A stretch of 52,227 bases of DNA from a virus. The notes beneath the pieces are model-generated. The model saw only the letters and a program-made list of their open reading frames with translations, did not search any database and was not told the DNA's origin. Location: IMG/VR virus record IMGVR_UViG_3300044695_002763, positions 1-52,227 of that record; one strand, given 5' to 3'. Positions 1 to 39,258 of the stretch are shown one piece after another (position 1 is the stretch's first letter; every line of letters starts with the position of its first letter). The translations under genes were made by a program, and so were the position numbers.

Positions 1-26
1 TTTTTAACCCTTTAATACTTTTTAAA

Positions 27-701
27 ATGGCTTTAACAGCACCCGTAGGCGGAACGGCAAACCGCCAAATCGCACCCGAGGGTAGTTACCCTGCGCGCTG
101 CTATCAAATTATCGACCTCGGCACGACAGAACAAGGCGGTATTTATGCAGGCAAAAAACGCAAAGTTCAATTCTTATTCGAGCTACCAACCGAGAAAGCA
201 GTATTCGATGAAAGCAAAGGCGAACAGCCGTACTATGTTCGCAGCATTTACACGCTATCGATGAACGAAAAGGCTTTATTACGCCGCGATGTTTCGGCAT
301 GGCTCGGTAAAAAGTTAACCGATGCCGAAGCCTCAAAGCTCGATATTTTTAAAATGCTTGGTAAAACGTGCATGGTAAATATTGCGCACGTTACCAAAGG
401 CGATAACACGTATGCAAACATTATAAGTTTTGCGCCGCTTATGAAGGGCTACGAATGCCCAGCGCCGATTAACGAGGCGTTTACTTACACCCCGACCGCG
501 CACGACCAACAAGTATTCGCAAAGCTACCCGAGTTTTTACAGGATAAGATTAAGGAATCGGACGAATATAAGGCAATGACAACGGGAAGTTTTAAAAACG
601 ATTTTATACCTAAAACGCAGCCACCTCAGAACTTTGAGGAACTACCCGACATCGACGATATTTTCGGACAAAAAGCGGCTAACGATTTGCCGTGGGATTA
701 A
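27..701 (+). CDS. Putative phage single-stranded DNA-binding protein
   Basis: This 224-aa protein has the look of a phage OB-fold ssDNA-binding protein. The first 150 residues form a beta-rich domain containing a conserved-looking YPARCYQIIDLGT segment and a LGKTCMVNI strand. A linker rich in Pro and Gln follows, and the protein ends in an acidic tail finishing NDLPWD. Such an acidic, aromatic-tipped tail is how SSB proteins recruit partner enzymes (known for the family). It heads the recombination genes (coiled-coil protein, exonuclease), which supports a role in replication and strand annealing. A GC hairpin follows the stop. The near-identical second copy is at 34566-35240. The family call is by pattern only. 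Confidence 0.6.
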   Translation: MALTAPVGGTANRQIAPEGSYPARCYQIIDLGTTEQGGIYAGKKRKVQFLFELPTEKAVFDESKGEQPYYVRSIYTLSMNEKALLRRDVSAWLGKKLTDAEASKLDIFKMLGKTCMVNIAHVTKGDNTYANIISFAPLMKGYECPAPINEAFTYTPTAHDQQVFAKLPEFLQDKIKESDEYKAMTTGSFKNDFIPKTQPPQNFEELPDIDDIFGQKAANDLPWD

Positions 702-709
702 ATAATAAA

Positions 710-728
710 GGGCGGCAAAGCGCCGCCC
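710..728 (+). terminator. Intergenic GC hairpin (weak terminator or mRNA processing/stability element)
   Basis: A perfect 7-bp stem GGGCGGC/GCCGCCC with loop AAAGC lies 9 bases after the SSB-like stop. No T-run follows, so full termination is doubtful. The same hairpin is kept exactly in unit 2 (35249-35267), and related GGGCGG hairpins sit after other small early genes (4608, 34190, 39259). Confidence 0.5.
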
Positions 729-754
729 TCTAACCTACAAATAAATAAACATAC

Positions 755-1426
755 ATGAACACGCTTGCAAAGGTACAAATACCAATCGAAAAAATATACC
801 ACGCGATAAATTCGCCTCAAACCTTAAACGCTCAATCGATAGTAGCACGCAACACGGGCGGCGGCGAAGCGCTCTCGGTTCAAAATGTTAGCGAATACAC
901 CGCAATGAACGCCGCTGTAAAAGACGTAAGCGATGCGGTTAAGGCAATCGAAGCCGCCCGTAAAGAGGTAACCACACCGCTCGAACATTTCAAAAAAGAA
1001 CTTATTAAACTCGAAAAGGATGCCACCGCGCCGCTACTCGATTTTATCGAAGATGCTAAAAAGCGCATGGTCGAATACCACGAACGGCTCGAAGCCGAAC
1101 AGGAAGCAGCCGAAGAGAAGCTAATAGCCGAAGCCGCGCAAAGCATGAAAGAAGCCGAAGCGGTTAGCGATGTAATCGCAGCGTTTACCGATAAACTTTA
1201 CGCCACAACAGTAGAAAATAACCAAACGAAAAACATACGCAGCACAATTAAGGCGCGTGTTAACGGCGAAGTTAACTGGGTGAAGGTGCTTTCGGTTCAA
1301 TTCGCATTTAACAACCTGAAGCCCGAAGATTTACTAAACGGCTTGCCCAAAGCAATGAAGGAGCTGGGCGTTGATAACATCGAAGGTATTGAGCTTTACG
1401 AACATAAAACGCAAGTAATCCGATGA
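755..1426 (+). CDS. Coiled-coil phage protein, recombination-associated (unknown function)
   Basis: This 223-aa protein has a long charged helical section, about residues 45-145, rich in Ala, Glu and Lys with a heptad character. It is flanked by a short N-terminal region and a C-terminal domain (about 155-223). Phage proteins of this shape often sit beside SSB, exonuclease and annealing genes, where they are thought to assist recombination. No catalytic motif is visible, and it does not look like RecT. It shares ATGA with the next gene, so translation is probably coupled. The unit 2 homologue at 35295-35966 is nearly identical, which shows the reading frame is real. Confidence 0.55.
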   Translation: MNTLAKVQIPIEKIYHAINSPQTLNAQSIVARNTGGGEALSVQNVSEYTAMNAAVKDVSDAVKAIEAARKEVTTPLEHFKKELIKLEKDATAPLLDFIEDAKKRMVEYHERLEAEQEAAEEKLIAEAAQSMKEAEAVSDVIAAFTDKLYATTVENNQTKNIRSTIKARVNGEVNWVKVLSVQFAFNNLKPEDLLNGLPKAMKELGVDNIEGIELYEHKTQVIR

Positions 1427-1818
1427 GAATAGACGATAACACAGCAATAGTCGAAGATAGCTTCGGGAATGGTATAATCGTACGCCGTGGGGGTAACACC
1501 CTACGGCTATCGATTCGGCTTGCAAGTCAAAAAAACGAGCGGCAAATTGGAACGATAGATATGCCAACGCGAACACTAACCATAACACGCAACCGAGCAA
1601 AGCACCTATTAAACAAGGGCAAGGCATACGGCTTAAATCATAAGTTAATCGCTGACGCTACGCGCTTCGATACGGTGCGCATCATTGACGATTACGCAAG
1701 CTGGAGCGTACCGCGTGAGTACATACTCGAAAACGGCAAATTTCTTTTATTTGCAAAGCAAGGCTTCGAGCTTCAAATATTTATTTCACTTGAACAAATC
1801 GAAAAATTTAAGCAATGA
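1423..1818 (+). CDS. Hypothetical protein, replaced by an HTH gene in unit 2
   Basis: This is a 131-aa protein of unknown function that I do not recognise. It has an N-terminal region rich in short beta-like segments and no obvious DNA-binding helix-turn-helix. It overlaps the previous stop by ATGA and the next start by ATGA, so it belongs to the same operon. At exactly this place unit 2 has an unrelated helix-turn-helix protein (36011-36358), so this is a swappable locus. A regulatory role would be a guess from position only. Confidence 0.7.
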   Translation: MRIDDNTAIVEDSFGNGIIVRRGGNTLRLSIRLASQKNERQIGTIDMPTRTLTITRNRAKHLLNKGKAYGLNHKLIADATRFDTVRIIDDYASWSVPREYILENGKFLLFAKQGFELQIFISLEQIEKFKQ

Positions 1819-2054
1819 AAAGGCAAACAGTAACCGATTATTTATACAATAAAGTGATGGACGTTTTTGTTAAATACCACGAAGAAGATGTACCAACTAT
1901 CGATTTCGGCGCAGTAATAACCGAGGCGTTTATAACAGCCAAAGCAATGGAAGAACGGCAAATTATCGACGCACACGATAGCGGCTACATTGACGGGCAA
2001 GGGCAAAAAAATATGTCAGCCGAACAATACTACAACGATACTTACGAAGTATGA
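1815..2054 (+). CDS. Small conserved phage protein (YY-motif family, unknown function)
   Basis: This 79-aa protein has the pattern AKAMEERQIIDAH...AEQYYNDTY near its C-terminus. That signature is common in small ORFs of Bacteroidota phages, with no assigned function. ATGA overlaps join it to both neighbours. In unit 2 the C-terminal half is nearly identical while the N-terminal half differs, and a second paralogue follows (36358-36570 and 36560-36769). Confidence 0.65.
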   Translation: MKRQTVTDYLYNKVMDVFVKYHEEDVPTIDFGAVITEAFITAKAMEERQIIDAHDSGYIDGQGQKNMSAEQYYNDTYEV

Positions 2055-2632
2055 CACGAGACGAATACATTAAACACCCAGCCACAAGCGCAAGCCGTAT
2101 AAAACGATTTTACACGGGCGATATAAGCTACGTTCAAAAGGCGCTAACCGAGGGCGCTGCGTTTCATTTCGATTTACTTGAGCAGCCCTATGAGCTTATG
2201 CCACCAAACACGCAAAACGTTTATAATGCGATTCACTCGGTCGAAATGTTAGGCGAACTATTTGATAAGTCAGAACACGAATACATTACCCTAAACACGG
2301 TAACCGTTGGCGGCATAACAGTCGAAGGTAAAGGCATGATGGATTTATGCTGGTTAGAGCGCGGTATTATTGCCGATGTTAAAACAACGAGCGCAAAGAA
2401 TATAAAAGCATTCGCCACTGATATGGTAGCACATTGCAATCATGTGCAAGCGGTTTGGTATTCGCTTTTGATGGGCTTTGACCCTCGGCAGTTTTACTAT
2501 ATCGGAGTGCCGCCAAAGGTTAAAAAGTCGGGTAAGTTTACCGACCTCTATTTGTACCGTCATAACGAAGAAGAAATTGCAAGCGCAACGGATTTAATAA
2601 TTAACTACCTGAACCATGAAGGAACGCGTTAA
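2051..2632 (+). CDS. PD-(D/E)XK exonuclease, RecE/lambda-exonuclease-like
   Basis: This 193-aa protein carries the signature of RecB-family phage exonucleases: a His in the early AFHFDLL segment (residue 39), Asp98 in GKGMMDLCW, Asp109-x-Lys111 in IIADVKTT, and Gln133/Tyr137 in VQAVWYSLL. These residues form the metal-binding and active site in PD-(D/E)XK nucleases. Such enzymes resect double-stranded ends for single-strand annealing, so it probably works with the SSB-like protein at 27. The size is short but adequate for the catalytic core (RecE-type nucleases of the DUF3799 kind). The next gene starts inside its end by 17 bases. Unit 2 copy: 36766-37347. Confidence 0.8.
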   Translation: MTRDEYIKHPATSASRIKRFYTGDISYVQKALTEGAAFHFDLLEQPYELMPPNTQNVYNAIHSVEMLGELFDKSEHEYITLNTVTVGGITVEGKGMMDLCWLERGIIADVKTTSAKNIKAFATDMVAHCNHVQAVWYSLLMGFDPRQFYYIGVPPKVKKSGKFTDLYLYRHNEEEIASATDLIINYLNHEGTR

Positions 2633-2867
2633 ACAAACGAAATTCGATTACCTAAAGCTAATTAGTCAACTCGATAGGCTGATTAAATGGATGCCTGAAA
2701 CGGGTGTCGGGTATCAAAAAAAGTTAACCAAGTGCGCGGAATTTTGGTGGCTGCATAAGGGAACGATACCAGCGAGTACAATAGCAATACTTTTAAAAGT
2801 TGAACGAACCGATTTAATAAACTTACTCAATGCGCAAATCATCGAAAGAGGCACTTACATACGCTAA
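2616..2867 (+). CDS. Small basic hypothetical protein
   Basis: This 83-aa basic, helix-rich protein has a Trp pair (EFWWLHKG) in its middle. No domain is recognised. The start overlaps the exonuclease end by 17 bases and the stop lies inside the next gene, as in a tightly packed operon. The protein is almost unchanged in unit 2 (37331-37582) despite many silent DNA changes, which supports real coding. Confidence 0.65.
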   Translation: MKERVKQTKFDYLKLISQLDRLIKWMPETGVGYQKKLTKCAEFWWLHKGTIPASTIAILLKVERTDLINLLNAQIIERGTYIR

Positions 2868-3093
2868 CGACCTCGGCGACCTAACAGAGTTTATCGGACA
2901 CACTTACAAAAACGTAGCCGCTTATCTTTTATCATGCGGCTTCGAATACCTCGAGTGCTGTTTTAAGTATCGTAAGGTGTTTAACGACCACGAAAACAAT
3001 CGAAGTATATTAATAGACCTATACGACGAAACAACCGAGCTTAAGGGGCGCGTTGAATACATGATAGTTTGTAATAGTATTTACAAACGATGA
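2830..3093 (+). CDS. Small hypothetical protein
   Basis: This 87-aa protein of unknown function has a Cys pair in the segment LSCGFEYLECC. It overlaps its upstream neighbour by 38 bases and the VRR-NUC gene by 4 bases (ATGA). The amino acid sequence is identical in unit 2 (37545-37808) while the DNA differs at silent positions. That is good evidence for a conserved protein even though no domain can be named. Confidence 0.68.
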   Translation: MRKSSKEALTYANDLGDLTEFIGHTYKNVAAYLLSCGFEYLECCFKYRKVFNDHENNRSILIDLYDETTELKGRVEYMIVCNSIYKR

Positions 3094-3482
3094 AACGCCG
3101 CCCGCCACGCGAAAGCGATATTTATACTGCCATTGCCCGTTACATGAGCTTAAAGCACCCCGAAATACTTTTTAGGTTTGACTTTAGCGCAGGAACTAAA
3201 ATGAGCATGGGGCAAGCAAGGGTTCACAAAAGCATGAACCCGCATCGAGGCTACCCCGATTTATTTATCGCCGCCCCGCGTGGAAAGTTTAGCGGTTTAT
3301 TCATTGAAATCAAAAAAGGCGATTTTAACCCGTTTAAGCGCGATGGAACGCTAAAGCAAGACGAACACCTTACCGAGCAATTTAAAGTCCTTACGCGGCT
3401 TAAAAAGGCAGGTTTCGAGGCATTGTTTTGCTCGGGGTTAGGTGAGTGTATAGAAACGATTGAAAAGTATTTGAATCAATAA
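3090..3482 (+). CDS. VRR-NUC domain nuclease
   Basis: This 130-aa protein is almost entirely a VRR-NUC domain: RESD at the N-terminus, Gly-Tyr-Pro-Asp57 in GYPDLFI, then Glu73-x-Lys75 in GLFIEIKKG. These are the D...ExK metal-binding residues of the PD-(D/E)XK superfamily. VRR-NUC proteins of phages are structure-specific endonucleases, thought to cut branched DNA during recombination or packaging. It overlaps the previous gene by ATGA. Its stop lies immediately before the promoter of the replication gene. Unit 2 copy: 37805-38197. Confidence 0.85.
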   Translation: MKRRPPRESDIYTAIARYMSLKHPEILFRFDFSAGTKMSMGQARVHKSMNPHRGYPDLFIAAPRGKFSGLFIEIKKGDFNPFKRDGTLKQDEHLTEQFKVLTRLKKAGFEALFCSGLGECIETIEKYLNQ

Positions 3483-3496
3483 ATTTTGTATATTTG
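3470..3496 (+). promoter_or_regulatory. Bacteroidota-type promoter for the replication gene
   Basis: TTTG (3470-3473) and TATATTTG (3489-3496) are spaced by 15 bases, shorter than the usual 19-21. The same arrangement with the same spacing exists in unit 2 (38185-38211). The structured leader begins a few bases downstream. Confidence 0.6.
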
Positions 3497-3500
3497 AATG

Positions 3501-3615
3501 TTCAGAGGTCGAAGCCTGAATGTAGTTTCAAAAATCTTGAAGCCCTTTGATGGCTGCGAGGCAAGGTTTAACAACCGAGCCGCTTCGACCGCAGCCGCCA
3601 AAGGGCGTTTTTTTT
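3501..3615 (+). ncRNA. Structured leader RNA with pseudoknot and terminator-like end
   Basis: Four helices can be drawn. Hairpin TTCAG/CTGAA (3501-3505/3516-3520) has a loop, GGTCGAAG (3507-3514), that pairs with CTTCGACC (3583-3590), forming a pseudoknot. An outer helix GCCCTTTG/CAAAGGGC (3542-3549/3599-3606) encloses GGCTGC/GCAGCC (3552-3557/3591-3596) and an inner GGC-GGTT/AACC-GCC hairpin (3560-3581). Eight T residues (3608-3615) follow and the ATG comes next. In unit 2 the helices keep pairing with different bases (38216-38317), so the structure is under selection. It could be an attenuator, a riboswitch or an autoregulatory site for the replication protein. I cannot match it to a known class. 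Confidence 0.8.
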
Positions 3616-4302
3616 ATGAAAAAATCATTTGTACTATACTGCGACACTTTTGATACGCTCCAGCATTTAAGCGATGAGCAACTGGGTAAGCTAACCCGAA
3701 TGATATTTGAATATCAAATAAGCGGCATAACACCCGAAACAAATAACCCGTTATTTATTGCCTTTGGCTTTATTAAATCGAGCTTAGATAGGGATTGTGT
3801 AAAGTATGAAGAAAGAGCCGAAAGGTCGCGTGAGAACGGCGTTAAAGGTGGTCGACCAAAGAAGAACCAAGCAGGTAAAAAAGAAACCCAAAAAACCCAA
3901 CGGGTTATTTCAGAACCCAAAAAACCTGATAGTGATAGTGTAAGTGATAGTGTAAGTGATAGTGTAAATGAAAATGTTAAAAAAGAAAATAGGGTTTTTA
4001 AATCAGTTATTGAAATAAGGGGTATGACATTTTTTGAAAAAAGCGAAAAAGTAAACGAAGCCTTTAAAGATTTTTTGATTAATCGAATAACGAACAAAGA
4101 TTATCCGACTACTTTAGGTATTAAATCTTTGATGAAAAAAATGCCTCAAATTTATAAAACAGAACAGGAGGCACTCGATGGAATCGCACGAAGCATTGAG
4201 GGTAACTATAAAGGCTTATTCGAACCAAATAAAAACAACAATCCTAAACAACCTAAAACCTCAACAGTAACACGCGCCTCGATGGGGCTAAAGATGCAGT
4301 AA
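3616..4302 (+). CDS. Replication initiator/organiser-like protein (DUF6291-like N-terminus)
   Basis: This is a 228-aa protein. I chose the ATG at 3616 because it follows the leader RNA directly and the unit 2 protein aligns from here; an upstream reading would run through the RNA. The N-terminal domain (about 1-75) contains LSDEQLGKLTRMIFEYQ and NPLFIAFGFIKSSLDRD, as in DUF6291-type phage proteins, followed by a basic GGRPKKN region. Next is a low-complexity Asp-Ser-Val repeat coded by hexamer DNA repeats (3928-3976). The C-terminal region (about 135-215) resembles replisome organisers (EQEALDGIARSIEGNYKGLF). The position before a DnaB helicase suggests helicase loading or origin binding. The C-terminal domain is swapped in unit 2, but the last 13 residues are shared. 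Confidence 0.7.
   Translation: MKKSFVLYCDTFDTLQHLSDEQLGKLTRMIFEYQISGITPETNNPLFIAFGFIKSSLDRDCVKYEERAERSRENGVKGGRPKKNQAGKKETQKTQRVISEPKKPDSDSVSDSVSDSVNENVKKENRVFKSVIEIRGMTFFEKSEKVNEAFKDFLINRITNKDYPTTLGIKSLMKKMPQIYKTEQEALDGIARSIEGNYKGLFEPNKNNNPKQPKTSTVTRASMGLKMQ
3928..3976 (+). repeat. Hexamer repeats inside the replication gene (possible origin iterons)
   Basis: A run of direct hexamers (alternating GATAGT and GTAAGT) lies within the replication gene, giving a 12-base period. In the protein it is read as Asp-Ser-x-Ser. Unit 2 has a related but not identical run at about 38641-38703. In lambdoid phages the origin lies inside the initiator gene O as iterons, so this is a candidate origin; it may equally be just a linker. 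Confidence 0.4.
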
Positions 4303-4334
4303 GAAAAAATATTTTTAAAATAATTTAGAAAAAG

Positions 4335-4365
4335 TTTGCAGAATCAAAAAAGAGTTGTATGTTTG
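4335..4365 (+). promoter_or_regulatory. Bacteroidota-type promoter
   Basis: TTTG (4335-4338), 19-base spacer, TATGTTTG (4358-4365): an exact match to the expected pattern. It is duplicated base for base in unit 2 (38986-39016) and occurs again before 33982 and 24608. It drives the small gene at 4394 and probably the helicase operon. Confidence 0.85.
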
Positions 4366-4393
4366 CTGCATCAAACTCTTAAACACTTACACA

Positions 4394-4600
4394 ATGACAA
4401 CTTCAATTTTAACTACAAAACTTCGAAACGGTGTAACAGTATTAGCAAAAGCTGATAGGTATGGCATAAACGCCGTAGGTTACTCAAACCTAACACAAGC
4501 TAACGCACGCCAAATTAAACTTTCTTTAGAGGGTATTGATTGCTCGGTATATCGCACACCATGTAATATGTCGGTAACATACATTAAAATAAATAACTAA
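4394..4600 (+). CDS. Small highly conserved early protein (unknown)
   Basis: This is a 68-aa protein. The ATG at 4394 is used because the preceding in-frame sequence is the promoter and its leader. It is rich in short beta-like segments with two Cys residues (DCSVYRTPCN) near the end. No family is recognised. The amino acid sequence is identical in unit 2 (39045-39251), and the DNA hardly differs, which makes it one of the most conserved genes. It has its own strong promoter and a GC hairpin after the stop, so it is likely expressed as an abundant small transcript. Confidence 0.7.
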   Translation: MTTSILTTKLRNGVTVLAKADRYGINAVGYSNLTQANARQIKLSLEGIDCSVYRTPCNMSVTYIKINN

Positions 4601-4607
4601 TCAAAAC

Positions 4608-4626
4608 GGGCGGTTAACAGCCGCCC
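4608..4626 (+). terminator. GC hairpin after small early gene
   Basis: GGGCGG/CCGCCC stem with loop TTAACAG, followed by AACTTTTAAA. The hairpin is conserved at 39259-39277, and a related hairpin is at 34190-34208. It is a weak or partial terminator; genes downstream have no other clear promoter, so read-through seems likely. Confidence 0.55.
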
Positions 4627-4654
4627 AACTTTTAAACCTTTAAACACTCAAAAT

Positions 4655-4798
4655 ATGCTTTACGTTAGAACACCATTACACGGAAATGAATACAAGGTAT
4701 GCGACGAAATTACCGACGAAGTAGTCGCAGTATTCTTTAACCAACAAGACGCTATCGATTACGTCAACTGGAAAACAAATAGGCAAGAAATATTTTAG
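4655..4798 (+). CDS. 47-aa small protein, absent from unit 2
   Basis: The short reading frame starts at the ATG at 4655 (MLYVRTPLHGNEY) and ends at TAG 4796-4798. It has the same kind of leader as its neighbours (TTTAAACCTTTAAACA before the ATG) and is followed by another GGTTAACAGCC motif. No function can be given. In unit 2 an unrelated 63-aa gene occupies the place (39307-39498), so this is another exchangeable slot. Confidence 0.55.
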   Translation: MLYVRTPLHGNEYKVCDEITDEVVAVFFNQQDAIDYVNWKTNRQEIF

Positions 4799-4827
4799 GC
4801 GGTTAACAGCCTCCCAACTTTTACCGC

Positions 4828-6213
4828 ATGAAACCACTACCAAAAATCGAGCAGGCTTTAATATTCCTTTGCCTAAACGCGGACGAAAATTATAAAGAGA
4901 TAATGCCGCAATTAGGCGAACATCTGTTTCAAGATGCCACCGCGCTAAGTTGTTTCAAGCTCATTAAGTCAATTATAAAAGACGAAAAGAAACCGACGCT
5001 CCTAACCATTGCTCAATACAACAAAACCGAAAAAAGCCTAACGCCTCAAAACATTTCGCAGCTTGCAAGCTGGGGCAATGAGTTATCGTACAACGAACCC
5101 GTTAACGATTACATCGCAATATTAAAAGACGAACACATTAAACGCTCCGTTAGCTCAATACTAACCGAGCAAGCGTTAGGTATTGGAACGATGCGCAGCG
5201 GCGTTGAAACAGCAACCGAAATAATTAAACGCCTTAACTCTTTAATTGAAGAGGGTAGCCCGACCGATAATATCATAAACATGGCTCAACTATCCGACGA
5301 AGAAAGGCAAGCATATTACCGCCGAGCCGCTTTGTATCAGTCAGGGCAAACGAGCGGCTTAAACACAGGCTTAACCGCCTTAAATCGTTTTACGGGTGGC
5401 TTTCATCCCGAGCTAATAATCTTAGCTGGTCGCCCGTCGATGGGTAAAACAGCCCTCGCACTATTTCACGCGGTGCAGTTTGGCGAGGCGGGCGTTTATT
5501 TCAACCTCGAAATGAATCGTAGCCAGTTAGCGCAGCGCCTTATATTGCAGCACGGCGAAAGCCTCATTAATAGCGCACGCCTGCGCGATGGTAACCTAAC
5601 GCAACCCGAGTTGCACGCGTTTGAGCAATCGATAGGCAAAACAGAACAGCTCCCTATTTTGATTTATGACAAAGCGCGTTGCGGTGTTCATGAAACGGTA
5701 AGGATATTGCGACGTGAGGTGCGTAAAAATCGTTGTAAGTGGGCTATAATTGATTATTTGCAGTTAATGACTATTGAGGGCTTTAAAGGCGGTAATCGCG
5801 AAGCTGAGGTAGCTGAGATAAGCCGAACGCTAAAAGCCGCGCAAAAGGAGCTTAACATACCGATTATCGCACTTGCTCAATTGAGTAGGCAAGTTGAACA
5901 ACGAGCCGATAAACGACCGATACTTTCAGACCTTCGCGAGTCGGGTAGCATCGAACAGGATGCCGATACCGTGATGTTTGTTTGGCGACCTTCATATTAC
6001 GCGCTTAATGAGGATAACGGAACGCCCTATACGAACGATGTATTTTACTTATTCGAAAAGCATAGGCAAGGCTCAACGGGTGAAGTACGTTTTAAGCATA
6101 ATGAAACGCTAACGCATTTTAGCGATAACGGCGGCAATACTGGCAGCACCTTTTTACCAGTTAAGGAAACCTCAATACTACCTAACGAAACATTTGATTT
6201 TACGCCGTTTTAA
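4828..6213 (+). CDS. dnaB: DnaB-like replicative helicase
   Basis: This 461-aa protein has the full DnaB layout: an alpha-helical N-terminal domain (about 1-110), a linker, and a RecA-like ATPase domain. The ATPase domain shows Walker A AGRPSMGKTA (about residues 200-208), the EMNRSQLAQR segment after it, Walker B IIDYLQLM (about 306-313), and the H4/arginine-finger region ALAQLSRQVEQR with LRESGSIEQDAD. Length and motifs match bacterial and phage DnaB, a ring helicase that unwinds DNA ahead of the replication fork. It follows the replication initiator-like gene, its probable loader or recruiter. The stop overlaps the next ATG. Unit 2 copy: 39499-40884. Confidence 0.95.
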   Translation: MKPLPKIEQALIFLCLNADENYKEIMPQLGEHLFQDATALSCFKLIKSIIKDEKKPTLLTIAQYNKTEKSLTPQNISQLASWGNELSYNEPVNDYIAILKDEHIKRSVSSILTEQALGIGTMRSGVETATEIIKRLNSLIEEGSPTDNIINMAQLSDEERQAYYRRAALYQSGQTSGLNTGLTALNRFTGGFHPELIILAGRPSMGKTALALFHAVQFGEAGVYFNLEMNRSQLAQRLILQHGESLINSARLRDGNLTQPELHAFEQSIGKTEQLPILIYDKARCGVHETVRILRREVRKNRCKWAIIDYLQLMTIEGFKGGNREAEVAEISRTLKAAQKELNIPIIALAQLSRQVEQRADKRPILSDLRESGSIEQDADTVMFVWRPSYYALNEDNGTPYTNDVFYLFEKHRQGSTGEVRFKHNETLTHFSDNGGNTGSTFLPVKETSILPNETFDFTPF

Positions 6214-6452
6214 TGACCACCGAAGAACGCATAATCGATTACATGACAAACTATGAACCCGAGCAAGGCGAATTTAAAGAAGGCGTTACGCATTACACCG
6301 ACACCCTTAAAACACATCGAAGCTATGCAGCGCAATTAATCAGCGCGCCGCGCACCTCGATAGCCTACCGATTGTATTTAAAACGCTCGCTCGATTGGTT
6401 AAAGCTCCTAAAAAAACACGGTATTAATTTGCAAAACATAATCAAAAAATGA
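6213..6452 (+). CDS. Small hypothetical protein
   Basis: This 79-aa helical protein (TTEERIIDYMTNYEPEQGEF...) of unknown function overlaps the helicase stop by one base. In unit 2 (41771-42010) it is nearly identical but is separated from the helicase by an inserted DNA methyltransferase gene. Its end overlaps the next gene by ATGA and carries a promoter-like element. Confidence 0.65.
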   Translation: MTTEERIIDYMTNYEPEQGEFKEGVTHYTDTLKTHRSYAAQLISAPRTSIAYRLYLKRSLDWLKLLKKHGINLQNIIKK

Positions 6453-6676
6453 CTATATTTGCAGCAATGGAAGCAACACCGAAACCGATTTCGAAGCGTG
6501 GTGGTCGCCGTGAGGGTGCTGGGAGGTCTAAGCAATACGGCGAACAAACCGCTACGTTATGCTTTCGCGTACCGCAAACGCACCGCGAAAAAATTACGGC
6601 AATGGTTCGCGCATACCTCGAAGGATTAAAGCTCGAATACAAATCAAAGAAACACGACCCCGAGTATGGATGCTAA
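6449..6676 (+). CDS. Small basic protein, possible ribbon-helix-helix DNA-binding
   Basis: This 75-aa protein has a GGRREGAGR basic N-terminal region followed by LCFRVPQTHREKITAMVRAYLEGL. A beta strand plus two helices of this kind recalls phage/plasmid ribbon-helix-helix proteins. A TATATTTG element lies at 6454-6461, so a shorter, nearly leaderless start at 6467 (MEATPKP) is equally plausible. Unit 2: 42007-42234 with only a few changes. It is a candidate transcriptional regulator of the modification/packaging genes. Confidence 0.6.
   Translation: MTIFAAMEATPKPISKRGGRREGAGRSKQYGEQTATLCFRVPQTHREKITAMVRAYLEGLKLEYKSKKHDPEYGC
6454..6461 (+). promoter_or_regulatory. Internal TAnnTTTG promoter element
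   Basis: TATATTTG lies with a TTTG 22 bases upstream (6428-6431). It is conserved at 42012-42019. The predicted transcription start is close to the ATG at 6467, so the transcript would be nearly leaderless. Confidence 0.5.
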
Positions 6677-7049
6677 ATTGTTAATCATACCGTGTGCGAT
6701 TGAATCGGTAGCCACGCGCCGCGATAAAACGATTAAGGTAACAATCGGAACGCAGGAACTAACGCCCGAACAAACCAGCGCGTTATTTAGTCAATGGATG
6801 GGCGGCGTAGGTGTTATGGCATTTAAGGGCGAACAATTCAATTACAACGACGAACAGCTTTTAAATAACCTTAAACTCGATGCCGCCGAACTCGGAAGCA
6901 AAACACCGAGCCAGCGGTTACGCGCAACGCTTTACGTTCTGTTTGAACACGCGTCCGAAGGTCATAAGGATTTTAACGGCTTTTATGCGGCAATGATGGA
7001 GCGATTTATTGAAATGGTTAAAAAACGAATCGATACTTATAATTTGTAA
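6666..7049 (+). CDS. Conserved phage hypothetical protein
   Basis: This 127-aa protein has an N-terminal beta section and a C-terminal helical section containing PSQRLRATLYVLFEH...FYAAMMERFIEMVKKRI. The C-terminal pattern is seen in uncharacterised phage proteins encoded near terminase genes. It overlaps the previous gene by 11 bases. Unit 2 copy at 42224-42607 has only a few substitutions. No catalytic residues are visible. Confidence 0.6.
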   Translation: MDAKLLIIPCAIESVATRRDKTIKVTIGTQELTPEQTSALFSQWMGGVGVMAFKGEQFNYNDEQLLNNLKLDAAELGSKTPSQRLRATLYVLFEHASEGHKDFNGFYAAMMERFIEMVKKRIDTYNL

Positions 7050-7054
7050 TTTTG
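7047..7054 (+). promoter_or_regulatory. TAnnTTTG promoter element before the modification cassette
   Basis: TAATTTTG in unit 1 and TAAATTTG at 42605-42612 in unit 2 lie 7 bases before the ATG of the 47-aa gene. No clear TTTG upstream box is present. Conservation and position suggest a short-leader promoter for the ParB/modification genes. Confidence 0.45.
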
Positions 7055-7061
7055 TAATACT

Positions 7062-7205
7062 ATGCCACTATTTCAAGGAGATACGCAAACGATTATAAGC
7101 ATGAACATTCGCAAGTTAGTTAGCGAAGGTTATTCAAACGAGCAAGCCGCCGCGATAGCATACGCTGAAGCCGAGAAATACCGCAAAGCAAGAAACAAGA
7201 AATGA
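7062..7205 (+). CDS. 47-aa protein with helical NIRKLxxEGYSxEQAxAIAYAEA motif
   Basis: The short gene starts at 7062 and its stop overlaps the ATG of the ParB-like gene (ATGA). The motif EGYSNEQAAAIAYAEAEK resembles the short helical segment found alone or fused in many phage head and DNA-associated proteins (of the kind GxxxxQAVAIAYxxA). The unit 2 copy (42620-42763) has the same length and keeps the motif while the N-terminus varies. That pattern supports a real protein. Function unknown. Confidence 0.65.
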   Translation: MPLFQGDTQTIISMNIRKLVSEGYSNEQAAAIAYAEAEKYRKARNKK

Positions 7206-7783
7206 GCGTACAACTAATAAACATATCCGAGCTAACGGTTAACCCGAATAACCCACGCATTATTAAGGACGAAAAATTCGATAAGCTGGTGCAATCGATT
7301 AAGGAGTTTCCCGATATGCTAAAATATCGTCCGATAGTTGTGGACGAGAACAACGTTATATTAGGCGGTAATATGCGTTTTAAGGCGTGCAAAGCTGCCA
7401 AGCTAAAGCAAGTGCCAGTTATGAAGGCAAGCGAGCTTACAGAGGCTCAAAAGCGCGAATTTATAATTAAGGATAACGTAAGCGGCGGCGAGTGGGATTG
7501 GGCGGTGCTTCAAAACGAATGGGACACCGAACAGCTCGATGCGTGGGGGGTGGATATACCCGACTTCGAAGATAACATGACAAACAACGAAGATTATGAA
7601 GGGTTAGACCAATTATCTAAATTAGATAAGTTTATGAATGCAGAATTAAAAAGAATGTTTTTGGTTTATGAAAACCAAACATTTGAAAAGGTTGTAAGGT
7701 GGTTTGAAGAAAAACAAACAAAATACAACTGCGAAGACAACAGCACGTTAATTTTAAAACTAATGGAAAATGAAAACATTTGA
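7202..7783 (+). CDS. ParB/sulfiredoxin-domain protein, unit 1 C-terminal type
   Basis: This is a 193-aa protein. Residues 1-95 form a phage-type ParB N-terminal domain, with LTVNPNNPR at the start and the ILGGNMRFKACK motif (about 53-64) that corresponds to the nucleotide-binding G-E-R-R box of ParB. After about residue 116 (DAWGVDIP) the sequence is unrelated to the unit 2 protein; its own C-terminal part is AT-rich. ParB-like proteins of phages and mobile elements often sit beside DNA methyltransferases. Here the partner gene is a TET/JBP-type dioxygenase that overlaps by 14 bases. I infer that the C-terminal part is matched to the enzyme partner. Confidence 0.8.
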   Translation: MSVQLINISELTVNPNNPRIIKDEKFDKLVQSIKEFPDMLKYRPIVVDENNVILGGNMRFKACKAAKLKQVPVMKASELTEAQKREFIIKDNVSGGEWDWAVLQNEWDTEQLDAWGVDIPDFEDNMTNNEDYEGLDQLSKLDKFMNAELKRMFLVYENQTFEKVVRWFEEKQTKYNCEDNSTLILKLMENENI

Positions 7784-8600
7784 GCTTACTAAAATACGTG
7801 ATTGTAGCGAACTAATAAAACAAACGCCATCAAAAATCGGTTACAATACTTTAATTGATAGCGATACTATATTTACAAAAAACGGCAAAAACGTAGGGGT
7901 ATATATAAAAATAAAACACGAATTGATTAACGAAATAAGGAAGGCGGCTTTGGAAACAAAATATGTTAAAACATATAGAACTCGAAGGGCTTTACCTACT
8001 CAATCAAGTGTTTTTGGTTCGCTTCCAAGAATTCCATTAAGAAATGATTATTGTAGGTTTTCTTCACAAACAAAAAACGAAAAGAAAAATACTCAACGTT
8101 TATTTACATTTATGGAAGTGTTAACAGGCATATATAAAAAATACTTGCCCGAACAGTATAACCATGATTTAAAAGTAATAAGCGAAAATGTTAACCAAGA
8201 TTACCTATTAAAAGAAAACCAACCTTTTGCAACCGCAAACATTAATGTAAACCACGCTATAAAGTACCACAAAGATACGGGCAATTTTAGGGGAAACTTA
8301 TCAAATGTATTAATTTTAAAAAGTGGTATTAGCGGCGGGGAACTTGTTTTCCCTGAGTACGGTTTCGCGCTTGAACAAAGCGACAGCTATCTATCAATTT
8401 TTGACGGGCAAAACGAAATACACGGAGTAATGCCAATTGCCAAAACGGGCGAAAACCCATACCGCGCATCAATAGTGTATTACACTTTAGAAAACATGAA
8501 GCATTGTTACCCTTTTAAAATGGAAGTCGAAAGGCTGCAAAAAGTAGCCACTAAAAGAGCTGCAAATAGGGCAAGCAACAAAGACCCAAGGTCAAAATAA
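7770..8600 (+). CDS. TET/JBP-family 2-oxoglutarate/Fe(II) dioxygenase (DNA base oxidation)
   Basis: This is a 276-aa protein. The C-terminal half is a double-stranded beta-helix with the expected ligands: His167-x-Asp169 in YHKDTGN, distal His218 in NEIHGVMPI, and Arg232 in YRASIVYY for 2-oxoglutarate. The stretch SGGELVFPEYGFALEQ between them is typical of the TET/JBP group, which hydroxylates 5-methylcytosine or thymine in DNA. Phage TETs are normally paired with a C5-methyltransferase and glycosyltransferases. No such methyltransferase is visible in unit 1, so thymine or a host-made mark could be the substrate. The gene is more AT-rich than its neighbours, suggesting transfer. Unit 2 has a C5-methyltransferase in its place. 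Confidence 0.8.
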   Translation: MKTFELTKIRDCSELIKQTPSKIGYNTLIDSDTIFTKNGKNVGVYIKIKHELINEIRKAALETKYVKTYRTRRALPTQSSVFGSLPRIPLRNDYCRFSSQTKNEKKNTQRLFTFMEVLTGIYKKYLPEQYNHDLKVISENVNQDYLLKENQPFATANINVNHAIKYHKDTGNFRGNLSNVLILKSGISGGELVFPEYGFALEQSDSYLSIFDGQNEIHGVMPIAKTGENPYRASIVYYTLENMKHCYPFKMEVERLQKVATKRAANRASNKDPRSK

Positions 8601-8618
8601 TACAGCGAAAAAACAGCG

Positions 8619-8933
8619 ATGCCAAAGCCTGAGAACATAGAGCCACATAAATTTAAGAAAGGGCAAACGGGAAACCCTAACGGGAGACCGCGTAAGCTGC
8701 CCGAACTTGATAAGCTATTAGCCGATGTGTTAGGCGAGGAAAAGGACGGCGTAACAGCGGGCGAAGCGATATTAAAAGCAATACGCGCACGCGCCGCTAA
8801 AGGCGATGTAAGGGCTGCGGAGCTATTGTTAGACCGTGCATACGGTAAGCCGAAGCAAAGCATTGATAACACCATCACCACCACCGAGCCGCTTGTTATC
8901 ATTCGCACCGAACCGAGTAAACCAGCCGAATGA
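8619..8933 (+). CDS. terS: Terminase small subunit-like protein (DUF5681 motif)
   Basis: This 104-aa protein has the FKKGQTGNPNGRPRK motif near the N-terminus, as in DUF5681 proteins, and a helical region LADVLGEEKDGVTAGEAILKA with repeated basic residues. These proteins lie directly upstream of large terminase genes and recognise phage DNA for packaging. The next gene starts at 8930, overlapping by ATGA. The shared sequence between units resumes about 20 bases upstream of this start, marking the right edge of the modification-cassette swap. Unit 2 copy: 44342-44656. Confidence 0.75.
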   Translation: MPKPENIEPHKFKKGQTGNPNGRPRKLPELDKLLADVLGEEKDGVTAGEAILKAIRARAAKGDVRAAELLLDRAYGKPKQSIDNTITTTEPLVIIRTEPSKPAE

Positions 8934-10246
8934 ATTTTACACTAACTGAAACACAAACCACAGCCTTCGACATGGCGACCAACGGGGACAAAAGAGTAAT
9001 TGTCTTCGGGGGCGCTATACGATAACCGCCCCCGCTCGAAAGTGTGGGGGCAAAGATTCGCGGCGGTAAAACGTATTGGCTTCTATTAACTCTAACATCA
9101 CTTTGTTTAACATATCCTCGCAGCCGTTGGGCGATTATTCGTAAAAGCCTACCCGATTTAAAGCGTACCACGTTCCCGAGCTTTGCCTCAATAATGATGG
9201 ACGGCGTAAGTAGTTACGTTAAGAATTGGAATAGGGAAACGAACGTTATAACTTTTACAAACGGTTCGGAGCTTATGTTTATGGCAGAATCGTTTGACGA
9301 CGATAAAGACCTTAACCGCTTTCGAGGTTTAGAGATTAACGGCGCGGGCTTAGACGAAGTAAACGAATTACAGGAAGTAACATTCTACAAAGTTCAGGAA
9401 CGTATAGGCTCGTGGAATAAGGCACATGGTAAACCGCCTATCGTTTGCCTCGCAACGTGCAACCCCGCTCAGAACTGGGTTAAGTCAATTATATACAACC
9501 GATACCGCGAAAACACATTGCCCGAACGTTGGGCTTACATACCGAGCCGAATAACGGATAATCCACACATCGCGCCCGAATACCTCGAAGCGCTAAAGGA
9601 ATTACCGCCTATTCAATATGCTCGATTCGTTGAGGGCGATTGGGACGTACTCGATGACGTTGCAAACCCGTTCTTATACGCTTGGAGCGACGAAAAGCAC
9701 ATCGACGATAGCGTAACACATAACGCACACTTACCGACGTTTATAAGCGTCGATTTCAACATTAACCCGTTATGTGCTTTGGTTATTCAAAACGTTGGCA
9801 GCACGGCTACGGTAGTGGATGAAATAAAGATTGAGCGCGGCTCTATAGATGCGTTCTGCGATGCGGTCGAAGCATTGAACATACCAATGGGCTTAATACG
9901 TATAACAGGCGACGCAATGGGCAAAGGCGGCACAATACAGGAGCGCGATAACTCGAGCGCATACATTCAGATTAAACGCCGCCTCAAGTTAGCCGATAAT
10001 CAAATAATAATACCAGCGAACCCGCGCCACGTTAACAGCCGTATTGATTGCAACACGGCACTAAAGAAACTCGATATTCGCGTAAATAGTAAAAACTGCA
10101 AAGGGTTCGTTTTCGATGCTAAGCAAGTACAATGCAACGCGGACGGGCAAATAATAAAGAGCAATAGAAAAAACATTACGGAGCGTGCCGACTTTTTAGA
10201 TTGTTTTCGTTACTTTGTAAACGCAATTCTAAAGCGATACCTATGA
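8930..10246 (+). pseudogene. terL: Terminase large subunit split by a 39-base in-frame insertion with stop (recoded or broken)
   Basis: The frame opens at ATG 8930 and reads MNFTLTETQTTAFD...VIVFGGAIR, then meets TAA at 9023-9025. After 39 extra bases (9023-9061) the same frame continues with GGKTYWLLL to 10246. Unit 2 has GGAIRGGKT uninterrupted (44653-45930), so the insertion lies inside the P-loop. Downstream features are intact: Walker B-like INGAGLDEVNE, and a nuclease domain with ISVDFNINPL and ITGDAMGKGG. Everything else reads open, so the protein may still be made. One route is restart at GTG 9044, which loses the first P-loop Gly; others are ribosome bypassing or read-through. A sequencing or assembly fault is also possible. 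Confidence 0.85.
9008..9061 (+). other. Split-P-loop insertion with competing GC hairpins
   Basis: The segment CGCCCCC at 9027-9033 can pair with GGGGGCG at 9008-9014 (7 bp, loop holding CGA-TAA) or with GGGGGC at 9046-9051 (6 bp), so two hairpins exclude each other. The codon before the stop is CGA and the last inserted codon is CGC; both are read by one Arg tRNA (ICG) in many bacteria. Take-off and landing on such codons is the arrangement known from T4 gene 60 bypassing. This is suggestive only. Confidence 0.5.
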
Positions 10247-10596
10247 GCGTTTGTTCACCTTGCTTCGATTCAGGCATTCAAGTAGCTTACTGTAACGGCG
10301 GTATAGCGTTTGGATTTGTAGAACCCGAAACTAACTACACCATAACGCTAAAACACAACGCAACGAATAAGCTGCAAGTGTTTAACGCCGAATCCGATTT
10401 GGATGGGCTGCTAACCATTACGGGAGCGAAGATAGATAACGGGCAAGGCTACACGCTCGAGTTAGCAGGCTGCAATAAGTTTACGATTTGCGAAGTCGAA
10501 TACGATTGCATTAGCTTTAGCGTGGCTAACATTGAAATAATCAGCGAAGAACCCGAAGTAATTAACTTAATGGAATGCGTAGAATGCAACGGATAA
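10243..10596 (+). CDS. Cys-rich beta protein, hypothetical
   Basis: This is a 117-aa protein. The ATG at 10243 overlaps the terminase stop as ATGA and is preferred over an upstream in-frame start. It begins MSVCSPCFDSGIQVAYCNGG and ends MECVECNG, with about eight Cys residues and beta-rich sequence between. No family is recognised; the position between terminase and tail chaperone suggests a virion or assembly protein. The unit 2 copy (45927-46280) differs by only a few residues and keeps all Cys. Confidence 0.6.
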   Translation: MSVCSPCFDSGIQVAYCNGGIAFGFVEPETNYTITLKHNATNKLQVFNAESDLDGLLTITGAKIDNGQGYTLELAGCNKFTICEVEYDCISFSVANIEIISEEPEVINLMECVECNG

Positions 10597-10793
10597 AATC
10601 AATATTACACGGCTGGTATCTTTGGGTAACATCGAACAAGGAAGCGAACGCGCTAAGTGATACGCGAACACCTATTTGTAACTTATGCCAACATCGCAAC
10701 AAGGCTTTAAACCTTTGTACGGCGTGCGGTTGTTTCTTGCCCGCTAAAACGCGGGTTAAAGATGCTGAATGTCCACACGACTACTGGATATAA
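10575..10793 (+). CDS. Small zinc-ribbon-like protein
   Basis: This 72-aa protein has Cys35-x2-Cys38, Cys48-x2-Cys51-x-Cys53 and Cys66, with GCFLPAKTRVKDAECP. This Cys arrangement and the CFLPAK segment occur in small zinc-ribbon proteins of bacteria and phages. The start overlaps the previous gene by 22 bases; a second Met (10584) gives a 69-aa form. The Cys residues are all kept in unit 2 (46259-46477) although other positions vary, so metal binding is likely. Its role in the phage is unknown. Confidence 0.65.
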   Translation: MRRMQRIKSILHGWYLWVTSNKEANALSDTRTPICNLCQHRNKALNLCTACGCFLPAKTRVKDAECPHDYWI

Positions 10794-10795
10794 AA

Positions 10796-11059
10796 ATGAC
10801 TGGGTTCATCCTCTGCCAAGCGTTCTTGAGTGAATCGCTCGATACCGAGGATGAAACCCTTCGCGAATTAACCGAGCGCGATATTGGGTTCGTAGAGGTG
10901 CTGATAAACGTAAACGATATAAGCCACGTTTTTAGCGGCGAGTATGAAGATTCAATAATTCAACTGCGTAGCGGCAATATCATAAAAGTAAAAAATGACA
11001 TCGACCACATTATCCAACAAATTAGGCGGGCGACTGCGCTCAATATTTTCGCGCAATAA
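10796..11059 (+). CDS. Small hypothetical protein upstream of the tail chaperone
   Basis: This is an 87-aa protein. I use ATG 10796 (MTGFILCQAF), because the bases around it are identical in both units whereas the in-frame sequence before it, from a possible start at 10769, varies. It contains acidic stretches (LDTEDETLRELTERD) and a C-terminal helix. Its end overlaps the chaperone gene by 65 bases. Unit 2 copy: 46480-46743. It could be a tail assembly factor by position; nothing in the sequence proves it. Confidence 0.55.
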   Translation: MTGFILCQAFLSESLDTEDETLRELTERDIGFVEVLINVNDISHVFSGEYEDSIIQLRSGNIIKVKNDIDHIIQQIRRATALNIFAQ

Positions 11060-11657
11060 GGCAAACCCCGAGTTACCTAAATACAACTTAGTCCAGCTAT
11101 TCAGTAAAGACGGCTTTAGCTATTACCGTTTCCCAAAAGAAACCTCGTTACCGCTCGAACGCTTTGCAATGAGTATGAGTTTACTCGAGCGATTAAGTAG
11201 CGGGCTTTCGGGTTCTGAGATGGAAGCAATACTAACTGAAATGGAAAAGGCTTTAGGCGCTGGTTTAACGAACCCGCGCAACGCCGCGTTAGTTGCTACC
11301 TACATACACGTTATTCGTGAAAGGCAAAACACGGTAATACACCGCGACCTATTGTTGAACATTGCCGCAACGTGGGTAATACGCTCGGACGAAAACCCCG
11401 CGATTATAAACCCCGATATTCACGAATCGAAACTAAAACTATTTGAGGCGATGGCAGAGGAGGGGTCGCACGATTTTTTTACAGGTTTGGATATCGAGCC
11501 GCTGAAACCCTTGTTACGTATGTCGCCCGACGAGTTAACGACATTATGGGATTACAACCGAGTCCAAATACAAAAGCTGCACGAAACCTTAGCGGCGTTG
11601 AGTTCTCACCGCGACGACGGGCAAAGCAAGCGCAAGACAAATTTAGGGAGCAAGTGA
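10995..11657 (+). CDS. Tail assembly chaperone, short product (gpG-like)
   Basis: This is a 220-aa, mostly helical protein (LERFAMSMSLLERLSSGLSGSEME...). It lies just upstream of the tape measure gene, where siphophages encode gpG/gpGT-type chaperones that keep the tape measure soluble during tail assembly. A slippery heptamer A AAT TTA at 11639-11645, correctly phased, sits four codons before the stop, so part of the ribosomes shift to the -1 frame. The same site and frame arrangement exist in unit 2 (47323-47329). The family is inferred from context and the frameshift signal, since these proteins diverge fast. Confidence 0.75.
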   Translation: MTSTTLSNKLGGRLRSIFSRNKANPELPKYNLVQLFSKDGFSYYRFPKETSLPLERFAMSMSLLERLSSGLSGSEMEAILTEMEKALGAGLTNPRNAALVATYIHVIRERQNTVIHRDLLLNIAATWVIRSDENPAIINPDIHESKLKLFEAMAEEGSHDFFTGLDIEPLKPLLRMSPDELTTLWDYNRVQIQKLHETLAALSSHRDDGQSKRKTNLGSK

Positions 11658-11767
11658 TGCACATCGCGGGCGGTAACGTTCTCGAGTTTAAAGAATTAAT
11701 GCAATCCGATATTGACGTTTTTTTGATTAAATTTGAGGTGTTCTATAAGCAACACCAAAATGGCTGA
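11639..11767 (+). CDS. Tail assembly chaperone, -1 frameshift extension (gpGT-like)
   Basis: After slippage at AAATTTA (11639-11645) the -1 frame adds 40 residues (REQVMHIAGG...YKQHQNG), making a fusion of about 257 aa. The extension is conserved in unit 2 at the amino acid level, and its stop overlaps the tape measure start (ATG 11760). In lambda, the T part recruits the tail tube to the tape-measure-bound chaperone. The independent reading that begins at 11546 is probably not used as a separate start. Confidence 0.75.
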   Translation, partial: KFREQVMHIAGGNVLEFKELMQSDIDVFLIKFEVFYKQHQNG

Positions 11768-24496: not shown

Positions 24497-24548
24497 ATGC
24501 TGTAAATTAAGCAGTTACAAAAAAAGTTTAAATAATTGTATGAAATAG

Positions 24549-24579
24549 TTTGCAGATTCAAATAATGTTTGTATGTTTG
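24549..24579 (+). promoter_or_regulatory. Bacteroidota-type promoter
   Basis: TTTG (24549-24552), 19-base spacer, TATGTTTG (24572-24579). The same boxes occur before 4394, 33982 and 39045, which suggests coordinated (early) expression of these small genes. Confidence 0.85.
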
Positions 24580-24607
24580 CAGAGTTAAACATTTAAACAT
24601 TCACACT

Positions 24608-34539: not shown

Positions 34540-34565
34540 TTTTTAACCCTTTAATACTTTTTAAA

Positions 34566-35240: not shown

Positions 35241-35248
35241 ATGATAAA

Positions 35249-35267
35249 GGGCGGCAAAGCGCCGCCC
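35249..35267 (+). terminator. Intergenic GC hairpin (unit 2)
   Basis: Identical GGGCGGC-AAAGC-GCCGCCC hairpin as at 710-728, kept despite divergence of the flanking bases. Confidence 0.5.
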
Positions 35268-35294
35268 TCTAACTTACCAAATAAATAAACATAC

Positions 35295-35966: not shown

Positions 35967-36010
35967 ACAATTACACCAATACAATAACAAACATTAAACA
36001 CTTAAAACCT

Positions 36011-38197: not shown

Positions 38198-38211
38198 ATT
38201 TTGTAAATTTG
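38185..38211 (+). promoter_or_regulatory. Promoter of the replication gene (unit 2)
   Basis: TTTG (38185-38188), 15-base spacer, TAAATTTG (38204-38211), as in unit 1. Confidence 0.6.
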
Positions 38212-38215
38212 AAAC

Positions 38216-38327
38216 GTTTAGAGGTGGAATCCTAAACGAAACGAAATTAACTTATCGCCCTTTGGGTTTACGAGGCAAGGTGTATCCGAGCCGATTCCAC
38301 CGTAAATTTCAAGGGGCTTTCTATTTT
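38216..38327 (+). ncRNA. Structured leader RNA (unit 2, covarying copy)
   Basis: The fold is the same as at 3501-3615 with changed bases. GTTTAG/CTAAAC (38216-38221/38232-38237) replaces TTCAG/CTGAA. Loop GGTGGAAT (38223-38230) pairs with ATTCCACC (38294-38301). GGTTTAC pairs with GTAAATT (38265-38271/38302-38308). GCCCTTTG pairs with CAAGGGGC (38257-38264/38310-38317). The inner AGGCAAGG...CCGAGCC hairpin is unchanged. The T-run is weaker (TTTCTATTTT), which argues that termination may not be its only task. Confidence 0.8.
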
Positions 38328-38954
38328 ATGAAAAAATCGTTTGTACTTTATACGGATAACTGGGTAACATTAAAGCACCTTTCTAATGAGCAACTCGGAG
38401 AATTAATGCGAATGCTTTTTGAATATCAAATCGAAGGTGCAACGCCTGAACCGTCAAACCCTCTATTTATTGCTTTCGGGTTTATTCGCTCCGCTATGGA
38501 TAGAGATTTAGAAAAATGGAACGAACGAGCTGAACGTGCGAGGGTTAATGGTTTAAAAGGTGGACGACCAAAAGAAAACCAAGATGGTTTACAAGAAACC
38601 CAAAAAACCCAGTCGGTTAAATCAAAACCCAAAAAACCTGTTAATGTAAGTGTAAGTGTTAATGATAGTGTAAGTGTTAATGTAAATGCAAATGCTAACG
38701 CTAACTTTAAAAAGTGGAGCGAGCAAGATTTGATTGAAGCTATGACACCTTACAAGGATAGATACCCTAAAGAACTTTTAAACGCTTTCTTTAACTATTG
38801 GACTGAGCCGCTCGCAAACGGTAAAATACGTTTGACCTCTCAAGACGCTTGGGATACTGGTCGAAGGTTGGTAACATGGAATAAACGCGACACCGATAAA
38901 CAACCTAAAAACTCAACAGTAACACGCGCCTCGATGGGGCTAAAGATGCAATGA
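38328..38954 (+). CDS. Replication initiator/organiser-like protein (unit 2, other C-terminus)
   Basis: This is a 208-aa protein. The N-terminal domain aligns with 3616-4302 (KSFVLY, LSNEQLGELMRMLFEYQ, GGRPKEN). The linker is a Val/Asn/Ser repeat, and the C-terminal domain (about 125-195, LIEAMTPYKDRYPKELLNAFFNYWTEP) is unrelated to that of unit 1. The final residues STVTRASMGLKMQ are again shared. An exchange of the C-terminal domain suggests a different origin or helicase contact, although the DnaB proteins are nearly identical. Confidence 0.7.
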   Translation: MKKSFVLYTDNWVTLKHLSNEQLGELMRMLFEYQIEGATPEPSNPLFIAFGFIRSAMDRDLEKWNERAERARVNGLKGGRPKENQDGLQETQKTQSVKSKPKKPVNVSVSVNDSVSVNVNANANANFKKWSEQDLIEAMTPYKDRYPKELLNAFFNYWTEPLANGKIRLTSQDAWDTGRRLVTWNKRDTDKQPKNSTVTRASMGLKMQ

Positions 38955-39251: not shown

Positions 39252-39258
39252 TCAAAAC

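What the first reader, a model, noticed from the sequence alone, without database searches (positions are those of the whole stretch)
3501..3615. Covarying double-helix pseudoknot leader RNA before the replication gene
Unit 1 and unit 2 (38216-38327) leaders differ in sequence but keep four helices through compensatory changes: TTCAG/CTGAA versus GTTTAG/CTAAAC; GGTCGAAG/CTTCGACC versus GGTGGAAT/ATTCCACC; GGCTGC/GCAGCC versus GGTTTAC/GTAAATT; GCCCTTTG/CAAAGGGC versus GCCCTTTG/CAAGGGGC. The inner AGGCAAGG...CCGAGCC core is invariant. The last helix plus T-run forms a terminator that ends at the start codon. This suggests a ligand- or protein-controlled switch of phage replication.
Basis: seen in the sequence. 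Interest (0 to 1): 0.85.

Follow-up and report, generated by a model that had tools for sequence, protein, structure and literature searches.

The report
Pseudoknotted leader before phage replication genes
A group of uncultured viruses of (probably) Bacteroidota bacteria carries a short, tightly folded RNA that starts at a promoter and ends in a transcription stop signal directly before their DNA-replication genes, so it probably works as a gate on viral replication; the RNA family is in no public library that I could search.

Summary
Both leaders (3499-3615; 38215-38327) fold as described. The loop of a 5' hairpin pairs with an 8-nt strand inside a long terminator-like hairpin, just before its 3' arm. 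I found 75 distinct relatives in uncultured viral contigs, one copy per phage. The pseudoknot helix is kept in 75/75 sequences with every Watson-Crick type at one pair. Eight pairs covary significantly on a tree-based null; no off-structure pair does. The 'invariant core' is not invariant: the inner hairpin varies, and only a GA linker is fixed. Most leaders begin at a Bacteroidota-type promoter (TAnnTTTG) and all end in a T-rich tract before the first gene of a replication module, either DUF6291-DnaB or helicase-VapE-like primase. A few very divergent leaders keep the same plan with different sequence. Rfam has no match. Best reading: a transcription attenuator of the phage replication operon whose terminator is built into a kissing pseudoknot. 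Termination, the signal and the direction of control are inferred. No antiterminator, antisense promoter or sizeable conserved unpaired pocket was found, which argues against a classical metabolite riboswitch or repZ/pT181-type antisense control. New RNA family, mechanism open.

The parts
3489..3496 (+). Promoter -7 box TATATTTG, Bacteroidota type (TAnnTTTG)
   Evidence: Sequence; exact TAnnTTTG upstream of H1 in 55/63 relatives (3 of these only at another offset, with a near match here), near match in most others; consensus from PMC7366714
3499..3522 (+). H1 hairpin (3499-3505 / 3516-3522); loop carries the pseudoknot strand
   Evidence: 5-7 bp, all 7 pairs with both-side changes; col 9/23 E=0.047
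3508..3515 (+). Pseudoknot helix A, 5' strand GTCGAAGC in the H1 loop
   Evidence: 8/8 pairs kept in 75/75 sequences
3582..3589 (+). Pseudoknot helix A, 3' strand GCTTCGAC, between P3 and B3'
   Evidence: As above; four A pairs with E from 8.8e-8 to 0.006
3542..3549 (+). Terminator stem T, 5' arm GCCCTTTG
   Evidence: Covarying
3552..3557 (+). Helix B, 5' arm GGCTGC
   Evidence: Both-side changes at A6 cols 59, 60, 62, 63, 100% paired; no single pair significant
3558..3559 (+). Fixed GA linker between B and P3, presumed to cross the deep groove of helix A
   Evidence: G and A in 63/63; geometry is inference
3560..3581 (+). Inner hairpin P3, internal loop AA/GA in this copy
   Evidence: col 68/99 E=6e-4; loop variable or absent in relatives
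3591..3606 (+). 3' arms of B (3591-3596) and T (3599-3606)
3608..3615 (+). T8 tract, end of predicted intrinsic terminator
   Evidence: At least 7 T (median 8) in the first 10 nt after the stem in all A5 members
3616..4302 (+). First gene: DUF6291 protein with similarity to primosomal / O-like initiators
   Evidence: Pfam PF19808 E=3.5e-26; PHROGs 6451, 678
4828..6213 (+). DnaB-like replicative helicase
   Evidence: Pfam DnaB_C E=4.6e-78
38204..38211 (+). Unit 2 promoter -7 box TAAATTTG
38215..38327 (+). Unit 2 leader: H1 38215-38221/38232-38238; A 38224-38231/38293-38300; T 38257-38264/38310-38317; B 38265-38271/38302-38308; P3 38274-38292; tail 38318-38327
38328..38954 (+). Unit 2 DUF6291 protein gene
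   Evidence: 57% identical to the unit 1 protein

Best explanation
It is a cis-acting leader RNA that attenuates transcription of the phage replication operon. Transcription starts at the promoter directly 5' of H1. The nascent RNA folds H1; P3 and strand A3' follow; the H1 loop then kisses A3'; the 3' arms of B and T close the hairpin and, with the T-tract, form an intrinsic terminator ending just before the first replication gene. Part of the polymerases stop and release an RNA of about 110-120 nt; the rest read through and make the replication mRNA. The pseudoknot most likely sets or regulates that fraction, by holding the terminator in a fixed fold or by presenting a protein-binding surface. 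Shown by sequence comparison: promoter box, fold, covariation, T-tract, position. Inferred: termination, partial read-through, regulation, its direction and its signal.
For: Fold and covariation. Helix A was not in the covariance model, and most members were collected without asking for A complementarity, yet all keep it. G+C-rich stem (hairpin MFE median -33.8 kcal/mol) directly followed by a T-rich tract in every A5 member, also where the ATG lies further away, so the tract is not merely part of the start site. Promoter box right before H1 in most members. In the loci inspected it stands before a replication module, of two unrelated kinds: DUF6291 + DnaB, or SF2 helicase + BT4734-N/VapE-like primase, so the RNA follows the operon and not one protein. 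Single copy per record. A scan for this architecture alone found hits in 91 of 263 viral loci (most of them fetched for this RNA), against 1 hit in shuffled DNA and 0 in 119 bacterial control loci. Divergent L351/L352 and L355 keep the plan with different sequence (shuffled-loop P 0.003 and 0.0006); L354 is only weakly significant (P 0.04).
Against: No RNA data: neither the start nor termination has been measured. No conserved antiterminator: helix A and the terminator do not overlap, and T5' pairs upstream in only 3/75 pre-terminator MFE folds, so no visible two-state switch. Unit 2's T-tract is interrupted. The first gene varies from phage to phage.
Confidence: 0.55

Rival explanations
1. 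It is a self-standing phage small RNA with its own promoter and terminator that acts in trans; the replication genes downstream are reached by read-through or from other promoters.
For: Compact from 5' end to 3' terminator; a start site plus intrinsic terminator is the feature used for intergenic sRNAs in Bacteroides (PMC7366714); position between modules is constant.
Against: The only loop presented (A) is sequestered and its sequence varies freely: 17 types. Little fixed sequence is left for one trans target. The terminator ends at or near the ATG of a replication gene, so it must affect that gene anyway.
Confidence: 0.2
2. The pseudoknot controls translation or stability of the replication mRNA, as the repZ pseudoknot of IncI-alpha plasmids does, rather than transcription.
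For: Replication initiator-like gene directly downstream; loop-to-downstream pseudoknot; stem ends about 9 nt before the ATG in the window.
Against: The T-rich tail is kept even where the ATG is about 20 nt further; antisense TAnnTTTG boxes are nearly absent (1/63 against 10 expected), so the antisense half of repZ control is not seen.
Confidence: 0.12
3. It is a metabolite riboswitch that controls phage replication.
Against: Only G and A of the linker are fixed unpaired positions outside the tail; the P3 internal loop is variable or missing; no antiterminator; no Rfam match.
Confidence: 0.05
4. It is a replication-origin RNA (primer, or transcription through the origin) rather than a regulator of gene expression.
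For: Lies directly before the initiator-like gene, which carries 12-bp tandem repeats (3931-3971), as initiator genes with internal origins do.
Against: It also leads modules without DUF6291; an origin does not need a conserved terminator; no clear GC-skew turn at the site.
Confidence: 0.05

Closest known systems
pT181 repC leader (countertranscript-driven transcriptional attenuator; Novick 1989, listed in PMC10724649)
   Same: Leader of a replication initiator gene with a terminator just before the gene
   Different: pT181 uses an antisense RNA and alternative pairing; no antisense promoter box and no alternative pairing found here; details of pT181 beyond the cited title are from general knowledge
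IncI-alpha ColIb-P9 repZ leader pseudoknot (Asano and Mizobuchi 1998, listed in PMC10724649)
   Same: Loop of a 5' hairpin pairs with a downstream strand before a replication initiator gene
   Different: repZ control is translational and antisense-driven (general knowledge; the papers were not held); here the partner strand lies inside a terminator hairpin and no antisense promoter box is present
Pistol ribozyme (from general knowledge)
   Same: A 5' hairpin loop pairs with a strand in the internal region of a second hairpin
   Different: Order of the inner hairpin and the pseudoknot strand is reversed; no conserved catalytic core; no Rfam match
HK022 put leader RNAs (from general knowledge)
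   Same: Structured RNA at the start of phage early transcripts
   Different: put RNAs prevent termination and do not end in a terminator; no sequence relation tested

Membership tests
Any Rfam 15 family | Covariance-model score at or above gathering | tested here: not met
   0 matches in the window and in 13 loci with divergent members; only weak matches far below gathering at E<=10
Conserved structured RNA | Significant covariation in several helices on a phylogenetic null | tested here: met
   8 of 34 pairs E<0.05, 0 off-structure (own R-scape-like code); tool counts
Intrinsic-terminator attenuator | G+C-rich stem directly followed by a T-tract between promoter and gene | tested here: met
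Intrinsic-terminator attenuator | Measured termination that changes with a signal | not testable with these tools
   Needs transcript 3' ends or in-vitro transcription
Intrinsic-terminator attenuator (switch type) | Mutually exclusive antiterminator pairing | tested here: not met
   T5' paired upstream in 3/75 folds of the pre-terminator RNA; a protein-dependent antiterminator is not excluded
Metabolite riboswitch | Conserved unpaired ligand-binding pocket | tested here: not met
   Fixed unpaired core is GA only
Metabolite riboswitch | Ligand binding | not testable with these tools
   Needs probing with ligands
repZ/pT181-type replication control | Antisense RNA promoter over the leader | tested here: not met
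   Canonical Bacteroidota box on the opposite strand in 1/63 members, 10 expected by shuffling; non-canonical promoters not excluded
Pistol / HDV-like ribozyme | Family strand order and covariance-model match | tested here: not met
   Strand order is H1(A5')-T5'-B5'-P3-A3'-B3'-T3'; no Rfam match; self-cleavage itself not tested

The most novel reading that the evidence does not exclude
A new class of RNA device: the loop-terminator kissing pseudoknot itself gates termination and is a general replication gate that phages place before unrelated replication modules. The freely varying 8-nt kissing sequence (17 types) may give related phages separate specificities, so that the released RNA acts on the leaders of its own type only.
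Probability: 0.12. Interest if true: 0.85.

Novelty: new variant of a known kind. Interest (0 to 1): 0.6.

Why it matters
It adds a well-supported RNA family to Bacteroidota phages and places it before the genes that start DNA replication. Because it sits before two unrelated replication modules, it points to RNA-level control of the replication operon as a shared strategy. The compensatory variants found here also suggest which paired changes to test when asking how a pseudoknot inside a terminator affects termination.

Tried and rejected
Metabolite riboswitch with an invariant core: rejected as the leading idea because P3 varies and little unpaired sequence is fixed. Antisense-RNA control: no antisense promoter box. 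HDV-like or pistol ribozyme: wrong strand order, no Rfam match. tRNA/tmRNA: none. Multiple copies per phage: no; the minus-strand matches only echo the near-palindromic hairpin. Search of 395 Bacteroidota genomes: two weak matches that read as plain terminators. BLASTN of isolate phages: only short chance matches. Literature: nothing found that describes it. The alifold of the pre-terminator part gave no alternative helix for T5'.

Full report
What is there. The leader at 3499-3615 and its counterpart at 38215-38327 each lie between a small nuclease-like gene and a DUF6291 gene, followed by a DnaB-like helicase. Each begins 2-4 nt after a TAnnTTTG box, the Bacteroidota -7 promoter element (PMC7366714), and ends in a T-rich tract directly before the ATG. 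Order 5'-3': hairpin H1; an A+T-rich linker of 14-19 nt; 5' arms of T and B; linker GA; hairpin P3; strand A3'; one C; 3' arms of B and T; T-tract. The H1 loop holds A5', which pairs with A3'.

Relatives. A pattern on the P3 core gave 114 stretches in IMG/VR; 37 places passed a first filter for A complementarity, one of them a chance hit. Fifteen sequences were used for covariance model R1 (nested helices only). R1 and then R2, applied to loci fetched through DUF6291, through a second pattern that does not ask for P3 or A, and through a helicase and a DnaB protein, gave 75 distinct sequences in alignment A6. Of the contigs searched whole, each with a match holds one true copy.

Is the structure real? 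In A6, helix A is complete in 75 of 75 sequences (8 of 8 pairs); one of its pairs occurs as GC, UA, AU and CG. Nearly all whole-structure measures exceed every one of 500 shuffles and all slid versions. A tree-based null that I coded (FastTree tree, parsimony-matched simulation, G-test with APC; not R-scape itself) gives 8 significant pairs, all in the structure, and none outside; helix A columns changed up to 16 times on the tree (a smaller alignment gave the same picture). Helix B has no single significant pair but changes on both sides and is 100% paired. Helix A was not part of the covariance model, so its support is not produced by the alignment step; the first 15 sequences had been filtered for A, most of the rest had not.

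The inner core is not invariant: P3 ranges from GGCAAGG..CCGAGCC to GGGTAAA/TTTACCC, GGTTT/AAACC and GGA..TCC. The only fixed unpaired positions outside the tail are the GA linker. This is unlike metabolite riboswitches as I know them.

Deeper relatives. Upstream of homologues of the L345 helicase gene, L355 (CM score 80.8) and L351/L352 and L354 (scores 23-25) hold leaders of the same plan with very different sequence. Shuffled-loop tests give P of 0.0006, 0.003 and 0.04, so L354 is weak evidence. An architecture-only scan found hits in 91 of 263 viral loci, 1 hit in shuffled DNA and 0 in 119 bacterial loci; most viral loci had been fetched for the RNA, so this shows specificity of the plan and not its spread.

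Context. The RNA precedes DUF6291-DnaB modules, sometimes with a small ORF in between, and also SF2 helicase plus BT4734-N/VapE-like primase modules and nuclease-led variants. Identical leaders stand before different first genes (L013 and L014), so modules appear to recombine at the leader. The promoter box, the BT4734-N domain and DUF6291 relatives in Flavobacterium, Riemerella and Cellulophaga phages suggest Bacteroidota hosts; no host was identified.

How it most likely works. Promoter, a fully structured leader and a terminator directly before the operon make transcription attenuation the simplest reading: anything transcribing the replication genes from this promoter must pass the terminator. 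That termination happens, how much, and what changes it are not shown. Two usual solutions were looked for and not seen: an antiterminator (T5' pairs upstream in 3 of 75 pre-terminator folds) and an antisense promoter (1 of 63 against 10 expected). The linker lengths around helix A are nearly constant, which suggests that A, B and P3 exist together; I infer that GA crosses the deep groove of A as in H-type pseudoknots. A protein or polymerase contact, or simply a fixed read-through fraction, then remains.

Known or new. No Rfam family matches, isolate phages show no match by BLASTN, 395 Bacteroidota genomes show none that I accept, and literature searches found no description. These searches are limited: the literature library holds open-licence papers only, and the genomes are a sample. 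I call it a new RNA family that works like a leader attenuator, hence a new variant of a known kind.

Noticed in passing
1-16603 and 34540-52227: The contig holds one and a half related phage genomes in the same order (78-97% nucleotide identity in blocks), about 34.5 kb apart: tandem prophages, or a joined assembly of two strains.
   Followed up: partly
4296-4397, 24511-24611, 38948-39048: A repeated stretch of about 100 bp with a strong TTTG ... TATGTTTG promoter-like pair, each before a small ORF; possibly a shared promoter.
   Followed up: partly
3931-3971: 12-bp tandem repeats inside the DUF6291 gene (AGTGATAGTGTA, 3.4 copies), possible origin iterons.
   Followed up: no
40881-41753: Unit 2 has an ORF matching part of a C-5 cytosine methylase between DnaB and the next gene, absent from unit 1.
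   Followed up: partly
L013:2206-2329, L014:963-1086: Identical leaders stand before different first genes, so replication modules seem to recombine at the leader.
   Followed up: partly
L331:5986-6204, L086 downstream of 9867: Two kinds of small ORF (64-99 aa, no Pfam match where tested) sit between the leader and the replication gene in some phages.
   Followed up: no
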